A stretch of DNA of 64,000 nt from an uncultured Bacilli bacterium (GCA_947588685.1 CANPYM010000004.1:1-64000); one strand, 5' to 3'; counted from the first letter of the stretch, positions 36,538-42,704 are shown. Notes: a model not told the origin generated them from the letters alone. Numbers and translations are program-made.

Positions 36538-36882
36538 ATGTATGAATATAGAATCTATAAAGAAGTTTATGATGAAATGATATCGGGAAGAAAAAATATT
36601 GAAATTAGACTGTTAACAGATAAGTCTGAACAAATCAAGGTAGGGGATACACTTACTTTTAAGGTTATTGATGAAGATTTGTTTTTAACTACGAAAGTAA
36701 CAAACAAATATATTTTTGATGATGTTGATGAACTATGGACTAATGAAGATGTAAGACGTCGTAGTTCAATAAGAGATACAAAAGAAGACTTCGTTAAACT
36801 TTTATATGAAATATTTGGTGAAGAAAAAGTTAAAGCATCTAAATTAGTTGGCATAGAATTTCAAATATGTATAGATGAGTAA
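36538..36882 (+). CDS. ASCH domain protein
   Basis: 'YDEMISGRKNIEIRLLTDKSEQIKVGDTLTF' is ASCH-like; 27 bp upstream of cas9. Confidence 0.75.
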   Translation: MYEYRIYKEVYDEMISGRKNIEIRLLTDKSEQIKVGDTLTFKVIDEDLFLTTKVTNKYIFDDVDELWTNEDVRRRSSIRDTKEDFVKLLYEIFGEEKVKASKLVGIEFQICIDE

Positions 36883-36909: not shown

Positions 36910-39900
36910 ATGACTAAAAATTATATTATTGGGTTAGATCTTGGTATAAACAATGTTGGTTATTCTGTTATAGATGGAGATGGTAAAAAAATTATTAAAA
37001 CTGGTGTTAGGTTGTATTCTCCAGCTAACAAAGCCAGTGATAGAAGAGAATTTAGAAATAGCCGTAGGCGGAGAAAAAGAAAAGAAAATAGAGTTCAAGA
37101 AAGTCTAAATTTATTTAAAACAATATCTTTTCCAAATAGTATAACAACAGATACCAACTTGCTTCAAAAAAGAATTAAAGGACTACAGGAACAAATAACT
37201 CAGCAAGATATTGTTAATATTACGTGTTATTTTGTGGCTCATAGGGGGTATATTCCATACGGAGATGAACCTGCTAAAATTGATTTGCACGGAGAATATC
37301 CCTGCAAATATTATCAAAAATTATTTGAAGAGAATGGAAAATATCGAGCTTTGGATGAAACTGTTAACAATTATGATTTAAAACGGGAATTAAATGATAT
37401 TTTAAGTAAACAGGCGTCATTTTATCCTGAATTAAAAAAAATAATTGATTCTGAAAAGGGATTACTATGGATATTTGGCCGTAAAAGAAAATTTTGGGAG
37501 GGACCAGGAAGTCCTAGCTCTTTTACACCTTTTGGTAGATTTAAAAACGAAGATGACGCTAGAGAATATTTTGAATTAAAGGCTCTTGGAAAAGAAAAAT
37601 ACTTATTTGAAGATTTAATAGGTCATTGTGAAATTTTCCCTAATGAAAAATGTGTGCCTAAATGTAATGTGTTTGCTGAACAATTTAACTTATTAAATGA
37701 TTTTATTAATATTAGAATTACTAATTCTGATAATATAAAAAAGCAAGATTATGTATCTGCATTTGATAACGATACTTATAAATTAACAACGATGGCTTTG
37801 AATGATATTATCAAATACTGCATGGATAGTGATGCCAAATCATTATCCTATAACAAGGTCTTAAAGGATGCTTTAGGCTTAAATATAAGTGATATCAGAG
37901 GATATAGAATTGACAAAAATAAAAAACCACTATTTTCTTTAATGAAAGCATTTAGATATGTAAAACGTATTTATCTTGAAAACGATATAGATATGTCGTG
38001 GTTAATTTTAGACCAATATAAAAATTATAATGTGCTTATGAACTTATTAGCAGTGTCTCCTGGTATAGTTGAAACGGAGCGAATGATTTCTAGTATTCAT
38101 CATTGTGATGCCAAAGAATTAAACGCTATAAAAGAGATAAAAAATAAGCTTGATAGAGATAATTTCTTTCAATATCATGCCCTATCAGAAAAGGCTTTAA
38201 AAATAGCAATTAATGATATGATAACTAATTGTTTGAATTTTATGCAAGCGTCTAGAAAATTTGATTATGGCAAAGCAGCTAGAGAAAATTTAGTTAAAAA
38301 CTATGGCAATGGTGAGGGACATTTATTAATGACATCTAAATATATTGATGATATTGTGGCATCTCCTCAAGTTAAAAAGACGTTACGTCAGTCTATTCGT
38401 GTGATTAATGCGATTATTAAGGAACAAGGGTGCTATCCTAGCGTCATAGCTATCGAATCAACAAAAGATATGAATGGTGATAATCAAAAAAAGGCTATTG
38501 AACGTTATCAAAAAATTCAAGAAAGTTTGCGTTCGAAAGCTAGAGAATATATTGAAAAAAATATCGGCGAAGATAAAGTAACAGAAAACTTAATAGAAAA
38601 AATTATGCTTTATTTTGAAATTAATTCAGAATGCCCATATTGTGGTAATCATATACCAATAAATGATATTTTAAATGGTAATGCACAAACAGAACATATA
38701 TTGCCATTAAGTCAAAGTTCCGATGATTCTCAGGACAATAAAACCATAGCATGCGACAACTGTAATCAAAGAGGTAAGAAAAATAAAACGCCTTATGAAT
38801 TTTTGAGCCCTGTGGAATTTGATAAATTTGTTAGTCGTGTTTCTCAAATGAAAATAAGTGATAAAAAGCGTGAAAACTTTTTAACAACTGAAGATGTTAA
38901 TAAATATCAAATTCGCTTTTTCAATCGTAATTTAAGGGATACGGCTTATGCTACTAAAGAACTTGTTTCGCAAGTCCAACTATTTAACTTATATTTAAAA
39001 GAAAATCTTAATGATACACAAATATTGACATTATCAACCCCAGGACAATTAACCTATAAAGTTCGTTCAGATTGGAAATTAGATAAAGATAGAAATGAGG
39101 AGTATCATCACGCTGTCGATGCTACAATTGTTGCAGGTATAGCTACTACCAAAATCGGGCGAGAAATAATCAAATTGCAAAATGATTCTCAATATTTATT
39201 ATTAAATAAAGAAACTTTAAAAGAAATACCAAAGTTAATTAATCAAACGTTTCCTACTAATATTAAACCAGAAATATTAAAAATTAAAAGTATGGATGAT
39301 ATATTCGTATCGCGCCAGGTAAATAAGGATGCTAATGCATCATTATCCAATGCTAATATCTGCTCATATGTCAAAAAAGAAGATAAATATTATATGATTA
39401 ATCAAATTGATGATATATATGCACCAGATTTAATCAAAGATGATAAAAAGAAAAATAAAGTGGATCTTTTATTTGATGAAAATGATAAGACTTCGATATT
39501 GTTGTGTCAAGAAAAAGACCCTCATTTGTTTAGTTATTTACGTGACATATATAACAAATATCAACAAGACCACACTAATCCATTTTTAAATTATTGTTAT
39601 GAAATGATGAAAGATGGCACTGAAAAATTTAACTATTTAAAGCATGGCATAAAGACACCATCTAAAGGTGGCAAAGGAATACTTGTTAAAAAACTTAGAT
39701 ATATGACTTCAGCCACAGATCCATTTTTACTAGAAAAGAAAAATATAAATAAGAAAGATACAACTTTAATTGGTTTAGATACAGTTTCTATTTATTGTAC
39801 GAGGTTATATTGGGATTTAGATAAGAATAAAATAATTTTTATGCCAATTTATACGCCTTGTGTAGACTTTAATACTAAAAAAATTAATGAAAATCATAGT

Positions 39901-40158
39901 CTTTATAAATTATATTATAAGAAATGTATTGAAGGAAAAAATGTTGAGTTTATAACCGAATTGTTTAATGGTAATTACATTGAAATTGAAAAACCAGATG
40001 GAACTATATTAAAAGATTATGTTAAAACTTATCACAAGATAAGTAAGTCTATAGAATGCAGGTCAGGAAAATATTTATCATCTAAAGATAAGTTTACATT
40101 ATACGATGTTGATATTTTAGGAAACAAGTATAAACGTTTGACATGGCCACTAAAATAA
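36910..40158 (+). CDS. cas9: CRISPR-associated endonuclease Cas9 (compact, 1082 aa, Zn-type HNH)
   Basis: RuvC-I GLDLGINNVGYSVID (D10), Arg-rich bridge 'RREFRNSRRRRKRKENR', RuvC-II 'VIAIES', HNH 'CPYCG...TEHILPLSQSSDDSQDNKTIACDNCNQRGKKNKTPYE', RuvC-III 'HHAVDATI'. Confidence 0.97.
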   Translation: MTKNYIIGLDLGINNVGYSVIDGDGKKIIKTGVRLYSPANKASDRREFRNSRRRRKRKENRVQESLNLFKTISFPNSITTDTNLLQKRIKGLQEQITQQDIVNITCYFVAHRGYIPYGDEPAKIDLHGEYPCKYYQKLFEENGKYRALDETVNNYDLKRELNDILSKQASFYPELKKIIDSEKGLLWIFGRKRKFWEGPGSPSSFTPFGRFKNEDDAREYFELKALGKEKYLFEDLIGHCEIFPNEKCVPKCNVFAEQFNLLNDFINIRITNSDNIKKQDYVSAFDNDTYKLTTMALNDIIKYCMDSDAKSLSYNKVLKDALGLNISDIRGYRIDKNKKPLFSLMKAFRYVKRIYLENDIDMSWLILDQYKNYNVLMNLLAVSPGIVETERMISSIHHCDAKELNAIKEIKNKLDRDNFFQYHALSEKALKIAINDMITNCLNFMQASRKFDYGKAARENLVKNYGNGEGHLLMTSKYIDDIVASPQVKKTLRQSIRVINAIIKEQGCYPSVIAIESTKDMNGDNQKKAIERYQKIQESLRSKAREYIEKNIGEDKVTENLIEKIMLYFEINSECPYCGNHIPINDILNGNAQTEHILPLSQSSDDSQDNKTIACDNCNQRGKKNKTPYEFLSPVEFDKFVSRVSQMKISDKKRENFLTTEDVNKYQIRFFNRNLRDTAYATKELVSQVQLFNLYLKENLNDTQILTLSTPGQLTYKVRSDWKLDKDRNEEYHHAVDATIVAGIATTKIGREIIKLQNDSQYLLLNKETLKEIPKLINQTFPTNIKPEILKIKSMDDIFVSRQVNKDANASLSNANICSYVKKEDKYYMINQIDDIYAPDLIKDDKKKNKVDLLFDENDKTSILLCQEKDPHLFSYLRDIYNKYQQDHTNPFLNYCYEMMKDGTEKFNYLKHGIKTPSKGGKGILVKKLRYMTSATDPFLLEKKNINKKDTTLIGLDTVSIYCTRLYWDLDKNKIIFMPIYTPCVDFNTKKINENHSLYKLYYKKCIEGKNVEFITELFNGNYIEIEKPDGTILKDYVKTYHKISKSIECRSGKYLSSKDKFTLYDVDILGNKYKRLTWPLK

Positions 40159-40166
40159 TGTATACT
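40138..40166 (+). promoter_or_regulatory. tracrRNA promoter
   Basis: TTGACA (40138-40143), 17-bp spacer, TATACT (40161-40166); -35 inside the cas9 3' end. Confidence 0.75.
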
Positions 40167-40172
40167 TAAAAT

Positions 40173-40268
40173 GGATATCGAAAAATTGTTTTCGCTATCT
40201 CAAATTACACAGGGTTTCCTATTATAACTAATTTTAGGTAACCAAAAGGTGCTTCGGCACCTTTTTTT
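40173..40268 (+). ncRNA. tracrRNA
   Basis: Anti-repeat GTTTTCGCTATCTCAAATTACACAGG (40188-40213) complementary to 26 nt of the CRISPR repeat with one G-U; hairpins; ends in AAAAGGTGC-TTCG-GCACCTTTTTTT terminator. Confidence 0.9.
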
Positions 40269-40271
40269 GTT

Positions 40272-41165
40272 ATGGCATTTAGAACAATTTATATTGAAAA
40301 GGCTTTACGAGTTAAATTAGACTTGAACAATATTGTTGTATATTACGAAGATGACAATTATTATATTAGTATTGATGAAATTAGTACAATTATTTTTGAT
40401 GATCCAAGATGTAATATATCTTTACGATTACTATCAAAATTATGTGAGTCAGGTGTTAATGTAATATTTAATAATGCATCACATTTACCAATTGGCTCAT
40501 TACAAACATTATATAATCATACACGAGCATCTAAAAAAATAGAATTGCAAATGCATTGGAATGATCATGAGAAAATATTTTTGTGGACGAAAATTGTTGA
40601 ACAAAAAATAAGTAGCCAAATTGCTACTTTAAAAGCTGTAGAAATTGATGATAAAGTATGCTTATTAAATGATATGTTAAAGGATATGACTATTGGCGAT
40701 TTAACAAATAAAGAAGGAATAGCTAGTCGTGTCTATTTTCGAGAACTTTTTGGTAATACTTTTAAAAGATTTAATGAAGATATTGTCAATTATTGCTTAA
40801 ATTATATATATCAAATTATTCGCTCAAAAATTGCTCAAGAAATAGTCGCTAGTGGATATGTACCAGCAATAGGAATATGCCATAAAAACGAATTTAATTG
40901 TTATAATTTGGCAGATGATTTTATTGAACCTTTTAGGCCGATTTGTGATTATTATGTTTATCATATTTTAAGTGACTGCGTTGATGATTACTTAACTCCA
41001 TCTATTAAAAGAGAAATTATCAATATCTTAAATAAAAATGTTTATTTTAAATCATCAATTTATAAAATTCACAATGTTATTTCTTTCTACGTGCAATCAT
41101 TATTTCGTTTCCTAGAGATTGGTGATATTGATGCTATAGCATTTCCCACTTTATGCATTCTATAA
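40272..41165 (+). CDS. cas1: CRISPR-associated endonuclease Cas1 (type II)
   Basis: 'MAFRTIYIEKALRVKLDLNNIVVYYEDDNYYISIDEISTIIFDD' type II Cas1 N-terminus; 'GYVPAIGICHKNEFNCYNLADDFIEPFRPICDYYV' conserved region. Confidence 0.95.
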   Translation: MAFRTIYIEKALRVKLDLNNIVVYYEDDNYYISIDEISTIIFDDPRCNISLRLLSKLCESGVNVIFNNASHLPIGSLQTLYNHTRASKKIELQMHWNDHEKIFLWTKIVEQKISSQIATLKAVEIDDKVCLLNDMLKDMTIGDLTNKEGIASRVYFRELFGNTFKRFNEDIVNYCLNYIYQIIRSKIAQEIVASGYVPAIGICHKNEFNCYNLADDFIEPFRPICDYYVYHILSDCVDDYLTPSIKREIINILNKNVYFKSSIYKIHNVISFYVQSLFRFLEIGDIDAIAFPTLCIL

Positions 41166-41509
41166 ATTTATATCGTCAAGTGCGACTTATGCTGATTTAT
41201 GATATACCAGTCGGCGAGGAAATTGAAAGAAAGAATTACAGCAAATTCCATAAAGATATAATAAGATTAGGCTTCCATATGCTTCAATATTCCGTTTATA
41301 CTAAAGTCATCTCTAATGACACTAATATGCATCAAAATATTTCTAGGGTTGAACGAATCTTACCTAAGTATGGTAATGTTATTGCTTTTAAAATTACTGA
41401 AAAACAATATCAAGATATGCTTTATTTGCGAGGTGAAAAAAATAAAGCTGATATTATTATTGGTAATAAAGAGCTAGTTATTTTTGGTGGTGATGATAAA
41501 TTAATTTAA
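41153..41509 (+). CDS. cas2: CRISPR-associated endoribonuclease Cas2
   Basis: 'RLMLIYDIPVGEEIERKNYSKFHKDIIRLGFHMLQYSVYTKV'; overlaps cas1; annotated start may be upstream of true start. Confidence 0.93.
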   Translation: MHSINLYRQVRLMLIYDIPVGEEIERKNYSKFHKDIIRLGFHMLQYSVYTKVISNDTNMHQNISRVERILPKYGNVIAFKITEKQYQDMLYLRGEKNKADIIIGNKELVIFGGDDKLI

Positions 41510-42381
41510 AAATAGTCGATACTGAAGAGTATTTAGAACCAATAAGAAAAGAAAACAAAATATATGTATTGAATAAAAAAGAACTATTTAAATTTTATTA
41601 TAAATTTTATAAACTTATTGTGTTGAAAGATGAAAATATAAATATTAAAATAGGTGAAAAAACTTTAGAAAATAGGAATAGTATATTATTAAACTTAACG
41701 AGTTTTAACGAAATATTGAATAATTTAATGTTTAAAAAAGGGACGTTATTTTATGAATATATTGAAAATTGTTTACAGAATGTAGACTTTAATATTATTG
41801 AATCATTAAATGTAATATGTGATGACATAGGAAAATCCATAGTAGATCAAACGCATTTAGATATATCATATCAATTGGAAAATGATCTAGCCAAAAAGAC
41901 TTTTGACCTAATAAAATTTAAATTTGCTCATTTGGAGTTGTTTGATAATTGTATTTTTGAACAGGTACTTAAAGATGTTATTGAAAAAAACACTTCAAAA
42001 CTTTTTATTATTTTTTATAATTCAGAAATAATGTCGCTCGATTTTTCTTTGCATAGTAACTGTTATACATTCGACGTTTCGGATACTACGTTAATTAGTG
42101 AATGTAATTTAATATGCAATGAAGGTGTGATTAATTTTAATGTGGAGACACTTCAAAACTATTTATATGATAATTGGCCTATCGATTTTAATGCTAATGA
42201 TGTTACTGCATATATAGATAGATATTATTTTTATTGTAAAATGAAAAGTAATATCTTTGCATATAACGATATAGAATACTTAGTTTACAAACTATTATCA
42301 AAGTTAAATAATAATATGCCAATAGTATTGCCAAAGTATGTAATTTCTCATAATGTTAAAGCCTTTTTAGACATAATATAA
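41500..42381 (+). CDS. Csn2-like adaptation protein (divergent); ORF track start is TTG 41569, reading frame extends to ATT 41500
   Basis: Position directly after cas2 and before array; Csn2-like length and secondary-structure pattern; extension INLKIVDTEEYLEPIRKENKIYV. Confidence 0.6.
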   Translation: MNLKIVDTEEYLEPIRKENKIYVLNKKELFKFYYKFYKLIVLKDENINIKIGEKTLENRNSILLNLTSFNEILNNLMFKKGTLFYEYIENCLQNVDFNIIESLNVICDDIGKSIVDQTHLDISYQLENDLAKKTFDLIKFKFAHLELFDNCIFEQVLKDVIEKNTSKLFIIFYNSEIMSLDFSLHSNCYTFDVSDTTLISECNLICNEGVINFNVETLQNYLYDNWPIDFNANDVTAYIDRYYFYCKMKSNIFAYNDIEYLVYKLLSKLNNNMPIVLPKYVISHNVKAFLDII

Positions 42382-42396
42382 TAAGTGTGATATAAT
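42368..42396 (+). promoter_or_regulatory. pre-crRNA promoter / short leader
   Basis: TAGACA (42368-42373), 17 bp, TATAAT (42391-42396) with extended TGA; predicted TSS about 42403-42404 at the first repeat. Confidence 0.7.
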
Positions 42397-42404
42397 TTTT
42401 ATAG

Positions 42405-42704
42405 GTTTTAGGATCCTGTGTAATTTGAGATAGTGAAAACTATTTTATAAAATTTCTATGCTTTCAGTAAGTTTTAGGATCCTGTGTAATTTGAGATAGT
42501 GAAAACTTTATCGCCAACTTTTAAAGCGCTTGGTACGTTTTAGGATCCTGTGTAATTTGAGATAGTGAAAACTCAATTCCTAATGTACTAGGACTAATTA
42601 AAGTTTTAGGATCCTGTGTAATTTGAGATAGTGAAAACCTTACAATATACCACAAATCAAGAGTATCAGTTTTAGGATTCTGTGTAATTTGAAATGGTGT
42701 ATGA
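42405..42704 (+). CRISPR. CRISPR array, 5 repeats (last degenerate), 4 spacers of 30 nt
   Basis: 36-nt repeat GTTTTAGGATCCTGTGTAATTTGAGATAGTGAAAAC at 42405, 42471, 42537, 42603; degenerate copy at 42669 (GTTTTAGGATTCTGTGTAATTTGAAATGGTGTATGA). Confidence 0.98.

What the first reader, a model, noticed from the sequence alone, without database searches (positions are those of the whole stretch)
36910..42704. Complete compact type II CRISPR-Cas locus: 1082-aa Cas9 with CxxC/CxxC HNH plus a fourth, Csn2-like gene
All RuvC and HNH motifs are intact (D10 in GLDLG, IAIE, TEHILP, HHAVDA). The HNH carries CPYC...CDNC Zn ligands and the protein is small, features I associate with II-C-like Cas9s. Yet a csn2-position gene follows cas2, a II-A arrangement. 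This mix of features, in a probably uncultured lineage, makes it an attractive small Cas9 candidate.
Basis: partly seen in the sequence, partly recalled or inferred. Interest (0 to 1): 0.7.

Follow-up and report, generated by a model that had tools for sequence, protein, structure and literature searches.

The report
Compact type II-A CRISPR-Cas9 immunity locus
This is a complete and apparently working bacterial anti-phage memory system built around a small Cas9, from a little-studied lineage of gut bacteria; it is an ordinary type II-A system in layout, but belongs to a distinct, uncharacterised Cas9 branch with a zinc-ribbon nuclease domain and a Csn2 helper that standard databases fail to recognise.

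Summary
Window 36910-42704 (+) holds cas9 (1082 aa, all RuvC/HNH residues present), a tracrRNA gene (about 40173-40268), cas1, cas2, a fourth gene and a CRISPR array (4 full 36-nt repeats plus a decayed fifth, 4 spacers of 30 nt). The fourth gene is a Csn2: AlphaFold2 model pLDDT 87.5, best PDB match the long Csn2 of S. thermophilus (3zth, E 4e-12), then other Csn2s; Pfam and NCBIfam miss it. It probably starts at an ATT codon at 41500, overlapping cas2. Two spacers match tailed-phage/prophage DNA at 27-28/30. The 'II-A/II-C mixture' is not a mixture: small Cas9 plus long Csn2 is the known St1Cas9 layout, Cas1 separates this clade from II-C, and the CxxC...CxxC HNH ribbon was absent from the II-C references sampled. 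What is new is a deep, uncultured clade (Bacilli, Anaeroplasma/Acholeplasma-like MAGs, Clostridia) sharing the four-cysteine HNH (20/20 Cas9s; 0/53 others), its own Csn2 subfamily and, in most members, a TATAG leader end instead of TTTGAG. The PAM remains undetermined. Verdict: real, type II-A, new variant of a known kind; activity untested.

The parts
36910..40158 (+). cas9, 1082 aa, RNA-guided endonuclease with RuvC and HNH
   Evidence: TIGR01865 E 3.5e-135; catalytic residues intact; 59-62% relatives in the family
38632..38763 (+). CxxC...CxxC cysteines (C575, C578, C615, C618) flanking the HNH His596, probable zinc ribbon
   Evidence: conserved in 20/20 clade Cas9s and in none of 53 other Cas9s compared; zinc binding inferred
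40138..40166 (+). promoter-like site (TTGACA-17-TATACT) for tracrRNA, overlapping the cas9 3' end
   Evidence: 11/12 consensus
40173..40268 (+). tracrRNA gene (predicted): anti-repeat 40188-40228, small nexus hairpin 40228-40237, terminator hairpin 40244-40265 plus T-run; start inferred from the promoter
   Evidence: terminator; fold z -12.4; anti-repeats co-vary with repeats across relatives
40272..41165 (+). cas1, 297 aa, type II Cas1
   Evidence: TIGR03639 E 2.7e-78
41153..41509 (+). cas2, 118 aa
   Evidence: TIGR01573 E 1.2e-20
41500..42381 (+). csn2 (divergent long Csn2), 293 aa from an ATT start that aligns with ATG starts of relatives; 270 aa if the TTG at 41569 is used
   Evidence: PADLOC Csn2 E 2.6e-5; AF2 pLDDT 87.5; Foldseek 3zth E 4.1e-12, matches 2-10 also Csn2; start codons of relatives
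42368..42396 (+). promoter-like site (TAGACA-17-TATAAT, extended -10) for the CRISPR array, overlapping the csn2 end
   Evidence: 11/12 consensus with TG before the -10
42400..42404 (+). leader 3' end TATAG, likely leader-anchoring sequence for spacer integration
   Evidence: TATAG|GTTTT conserved in most of the clade; TTTGAG in control II-A loci; function inferred
42405..42704 (+). CRISPR array: repeats at 42405, 42471, 42537, 42603 and a degenerate distal repeat at 42669-42704; four 30-nt spacers
   Evidence: the repeat finder; spacers 3 and 4 match phage/prophage DNA

Best explanation
A complete type II-A CRISPR-Cas adaptive immune locus. Inferred working: the array is transcribed from the promoter in its leader; tracrRNA made between cas9 and cas1 pairs with each repeat; RNase III and Cas9 mature the dual guide; Cas9 cuts matching phage DNA with HNH and RuvC; Cas1-Cas2, with Csn2 and Cas9, insert new 30-nt spacers at the TATAG|repeat junction. 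Shown here: all genes and RNA parts in place, intact active sites, co-evolving repeat and anti-repeat, Csn2 fold (predicted model), spacers matching phages. Inferred: expression, processing, cleavage, acquisition, zinc binding. It belongs to a distinct compact-Cas9 clade next to, but separate from, the SaCas9/St1Cas9 group.
For: Gene content and order; Csn2 fold; Cas1 tree puts the clade with II-A and apart from II-C references, 99*; Cas9 tree gives clade support 100*, sister to the Sa/St1 group at 92; repeat/anti-repeat duplex and co-variation, nexus stem changes CUA/UAG, CUC/GAG, CAC/GUG among relatives (sequences, read by eye); promoters and terminator in place; spacer 4 27/30 to the own-genome prophage region, spacer 3 27/30 and 28/30 to a portal gene.
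Against: No expression or cleavage data. The array is short (4 spacers), and the own genome tolerates a prophage that matches spacer 4 with 3 mismatches. csn2 lacks a canonical start codon. Cas9 deep placement is not decisive (AU p 0.346 for joining II-C references), and II-C sampling was small.
Confidence: 0.9

Rival explanations
1. A II-C Cas9 that has captured a csn2 gene (a true II-C/II-A hybrid).
For: Small Cas9; the AU test does not reject joining the clade with II-C reference Cas9s (p 0.346).
Against: Cas1 separates the clade from II-C references with 99*; Cas9 tree prefers the Sa/St1 group (92); csn2 is kept in nearly all clade loci whose contig is long enough; the HNH domain itself is most like St1Cas9; the cysteine ribbon was absent from the sampled II-C Cas9s; array and tracr run in operon direction.
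Confidence: 0.07
2. A decaying locus: non-standard csn2 start, few spacers, degenerate last repeat, prophage tolerated in the same genome.
For: ATT start; only 4 spacers; prophage matching spacer 4 at 27/30 in the same genome.
Against: All cas reading frames intact; four identical repeats; promoters and terminator in place; a degenerate distal repeat is normal; the three protospacer mismatches may be escape changes; some relatives also lack an ATG at this start.
Confidence: 0.08
3. The fourth gene is not Csn2 but an unrelated protein sitting at the csn2 position.
For: No Pfam or NCBIfam match; weak PADLOC match only.
Against: Foldseek top ten are all Csn2 structures; profile match to 3zth, E 0.025, and hhalign 86% over 251 columns to other small-Cas9 Csn2s.
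Confidence: 0.02

Closest known systems
Streptococcus thermophilus CRISPR1 (St1Cas9, long Csn2b, Stu0660/3zth), type II-A
   Same: Small Cas9 (1121 aa), four-gene II-A operon with the array in operon direction, long Csn2 fold; St1 is the best solved match to Cas9 and to its HNH domain (PMC3936727)
   Different: Distant in sequence; St1Cas9 lacks the four-cysteine ribbon; leader ends ATTTGAG there (PMC5382924), TATAG here; Csn2 only fold-level similar (13% identity)
Staphylococcus aureus Cas9 (SaCas9, 1053 aa)
   Same: Size, long alignment, catalytic residues; mollicute Cas9s are also reported as SaCas9-like (PMC6882279)
   Different: Ribbon cysteines not kept in its HNH; separate clade in the Cas9 tree; alignment fades in the C-terminal part that includes the PAM-interacting region
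Cas9d (II-D), HEARO/IscB and AnaCas9 Zn-finger HNH domains
   Same: Cysteine ribbon around the HNH motif (PMC9755519 for Cas9d/HEARO; AnaCas9 zinc from own knowledge)
   Different: NCBIfam Cas9d 107 bits against cut-off 375; different gene content; 36 residues between the cysteine pairs here, 27-31 in Cas9d
Mollicutes type II-A systems (Mycoplasma, Spiroplasma; PMC6882279)
   Same: Related hosts, II-A layout with csn2, SaCas9-like size
   Different: Those loci were not compared directly here; the text of that survey does not mention Anaeroplasma, found here in the clade

Membership tests
CRISPR-Cas type II | Cas9 with RuvC and HNH, cas1, cas2, tracrRNA and array | tested here: met
Type II-A | csn2 as fourth gene after cas2 | tested here: met
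   Fold match of the predicted model to Csn2 structures and PADLOC Csn2
Type II-A | Array transcribed in the direction of the cas operon | tested here: met
   Anti-repeat strand, array promoter, degenerate distal repeat
Type II-A | Cas1 groups with II-A Cas1 proteins | tested here: met
   II-C references split off at 99*; few II-C references
Type II-A | Cas9 groups with II-A Cas9 proteins | tested here: inconclusive
   Sister to Sa/St1 at 92; joining II-C references not rejected, p 0.346
Type II-A | Leader 3' end ATTTGAG, CTRCGAG or CG (groups in PMC5382924); a frequent trait, not a defining one | tested here: not met
   TATAG here and in most of the clade
Type II-C | Three-gene operon without csn2/cas4 | tested here: not met
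   csn2 present
Type II-D / Cas9d | Scores over the curated Cas9d model | tested here: not met
   107 bits, cut-off 375
Known Csn2 families of Pfam/NCBIfam | Match to a curated Csn2 model | tested here: not met
   No match at E 1
Active RNA-guided DNA endonuclease | Guided cleavage beside a PAM | not testable with these tools
   No experiment; PAM not resolved

The most novel reading that the evidence does not exclude
The clade is a separate sub-lineage of type II-A in which effector and adaptation parts changed together: a Cas9 whose HNH domain carries a structural zinc ribbon like IscB/Cas9d, a Csn2 subfamily outside the recognised ones, and a Cas1-Cas2 integrase anchored on TATAG instead of TTTGAG.
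Probability: 0.55. Interest if true: 0.5.

Novelty: new variant of a known kind. Interest (0 to 1): 0.42.

Why it matters
It adds an uncharacterised branch of small Cas9s with complete, directly testable guide RNA parts, of a size useful for delivery. It shows that a csn2 gene can be missed by standard models, so some loci called II-C by annotation may be II-A. The switch of the leader end from TTTGAG to TATAG within one Cas1-Cas2-Csn2 family is a natural experiment on how the integrase chooses its site.

Tried and rejected
PAM from spacers: the window's two protospacers have 3' flanks CCTTGTAA and TCAAGTAT, which share NCNNGTA, but n = 2, the matches are imperfect, and hits for relatives' spacers show no common motif; no PAM claimed. 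Spacer 3 also hit eight viral contigs over 19 nt only (22-23/30), judged chance. Spacer 1 hits of 25/30 in two relatives are AT-rich and weak, not used. Spacers against 50,697 phage records gave one weak hit, an inovirus at 26/30 to a relative's spacer, and none for a second set. The scans of genome contigs and viral contigs with the single Cas9 sequence found nothing; the alignment scan worked. An AlphaFold2 model of Cas9 came out poor (pTM 0.35) and was not used. The idea of an HNH domain swap from IscB was rejected because the HNH domain matches St1Cas9 best.

Full report
1. What is there. On the + strand of the window, 36910-40158 encodes a 1082-aa Cas9, 40272-41165 Cas1, 41153-41509 Cas2, and 41500-42381 a fourth protein; a CRISPR array fills 42405-42704. 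The Cas9 has the RuvC and HNH residues intact: D10, E516, H596, N619, H734 and D737 stand at the SaCas9 catalytic positions. HNH cysteines C575/C578 and C615/C618 are present. In this clade the acidic residue before the HNH histidine is usually Glu (E595 here), where SaCas9 has Asp.

2. RNA parts. Between cas9 and cas1 lies a predicted tracrRNA gene: a promoter-like site of 11/12 matches at 40138-40166, an anti-repeat from 40188, and an intrinsic terminator at 40244-40265. The repeat and this region pair with -47 kcal/mol, against -14.9 +/- 2.8 for 500 shuffles, and the joined RNA folds with z -12.4. Across nine loci with different repeats, the cognate tracr is the best or second-best partner in each case, so repeat and anti-repeat co-evolve. 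After the conserved core CCUAUUAUAAC, the short nexus stem changes in a compensating way among relatives (CUA/UAG, CUC/GAG, CAC/GUG; sequences, read by eye). A second 11/12 promoter with an extended -10 lies at 42368-42396, just before the array.

3. The fourth gene. It has no Pfam or NCBIfam match and a marginal PADLOC Csn2 match (E 2.6e-5). Homologs sit in the same place in nearly all clade loci whose contig reaches that far. An AlphaFold2 model from 16 homologs has mean pLDDT 87.5 and pTM 0.80. The best PDB match is 3zth, the long Csn2 of S. thermophilus (E 4.1e-12, TM 0.63 by query length), and matches 2-10 are all Csn2 structures. Profile comparison agrees (hhalign probability 86% over 251 columns to Csn2s of other small-Cas9 loci). 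In some relatives the same first residues (MNLKI...) start with ATG; here the codon is ATT at 41500. The TTG at 41569 would remove the first beta-hairpin, which is among the best predicted parts, so ATT is preferred; this is inference.

4. Relatives and placement. The genome is a 1.16-Mb MAG. Cas9s 59-62% identical occur in MAGs named uncultured Bacilli or Tenericutes (sample names point to rabbit and chicken gut); 37-45% relatives include Acholeplasmataceae and Anaeroplasma MAGs, and 31-34% relatives are Clostridia. In a 67-row Cas9 tree these form one clade (100*), sister to the SaCas9/St1Cas9 group (92), with II-C references outside (99*) and large II-A Cas9s elsewhere. An AU test does not reject joining the clade with the II-C references (p 0.346), so the Cas9 tree alone is not decisive. 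In the Cas1 tree the clade lies with II-A and apart from II-C references (99*). With csn2 present, the locus is type II-A.

5. Is it a mixture? No. A small Cas9 with a long Csn2 is the known S. thermophilus CRISPR1 arrangement (PMC3936727), and mollicute II-A Cas9s are SaCas9-like (PMC6882279). The four cysteines are found in 20/20 clade Cas9s and in none of 53 others compared, including the II-C references; one large Cas9, L096, has three of the four. Zn-finger HNH domains are described for Cas9d and HEARO (PMC9755519). The HNH domain here is nonetheless St1-like, so a regained or retained ribbon is more likely than a domain swap.

6. Leader end. Eight SaCas9/St1-type II-A control loci end their leader in TTTGAG|GTTT, the known Group 1 motif (PMC5382924). 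In the clade nearly all arrays read end in TATAG|GTTT, from the Bacilli to the Clostridia; L058 has five extra bases (GTTTT) after TATAG, and the two exceptions (L071, L073, one family) keep TTTTGAG. This suggests a changed leader anchor for Cas1-Cas2-Csn2; function is inferred.

7. Targets. Spacer 4 matches 27/30 a stretch of the same genome between terminase-side and regulator genes of a prophage (G000:C1:70065-70094). Spacer 3 matches 27/30 in the portal gene of a prophage-like region in a family member and 28/30 in the corresponding gene of an IMG/VR contig. Shuffled versions of these two spacers gave no match of 24 or more in 20 runs over 1.07 Mb. So the array records tailed phages of these hosts. 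The 3' flanks (CCTTGTAA, TCAAGTAT) are too few to give a PAM.

8. Verdict. A real, complete type II-A locus, most probably functional, in an uncharacterised compact-Cas9 clade with its own Csn2 subfamily and leader end. New variant of a known kind. Expression, cleavage, zinc binding and acquisition are not shown.

Noticed in passing
G000:C25:29233-33195 (L042): The same genome carries a second type II-A locus: 1348-aa Cas9, cas1, cas2, short csn2 (229 aa, TIGR01866 E 7.7e-34) and an array of at least 36 repeats.
   Followed up: partly
L080:5968-9147 (uncultured Clostridium MAG): A clade Cas9 whose HNH catalytic His is Asn and whose HNH Asn is Arg, with the four cysteines kept: possibly a natural HNH-inactive Cas9. 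Its contig ends soon after cas9.
   Followed up: no
L064 array and G677:C2:51805-51834: A spacer in this relative matches its own genome 30/30 at a site conserved in about 20 family genomes: possible self-targeting.
   Followed up: no
G000:C1 about 64-75 kb (L143): Prophage region with integrase, portal and terminase, matched 27/30 by window spacer 4; the three mismatches lie about 8-11 nt from the 3' (PAM) side, as might be expected of escape changes.
   Followed up: partly
L037/L072 (G022:C37): Cas9 of a close relative is split by a frameshift, which may be an assembly error or a pseudogene.
   Followed up: no
L040/L073: A MAG contig holds a clade locus and, a few kb away, a second cas1-cas2 set with its own array, whose Cas1 groups with large-Cas9 II-A systems.
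   Followed up: no
window 36538-36882: Small ASCH/DUF3850-like gene directly upstream of cas9; link to the locus not tested.
   Followed up: no
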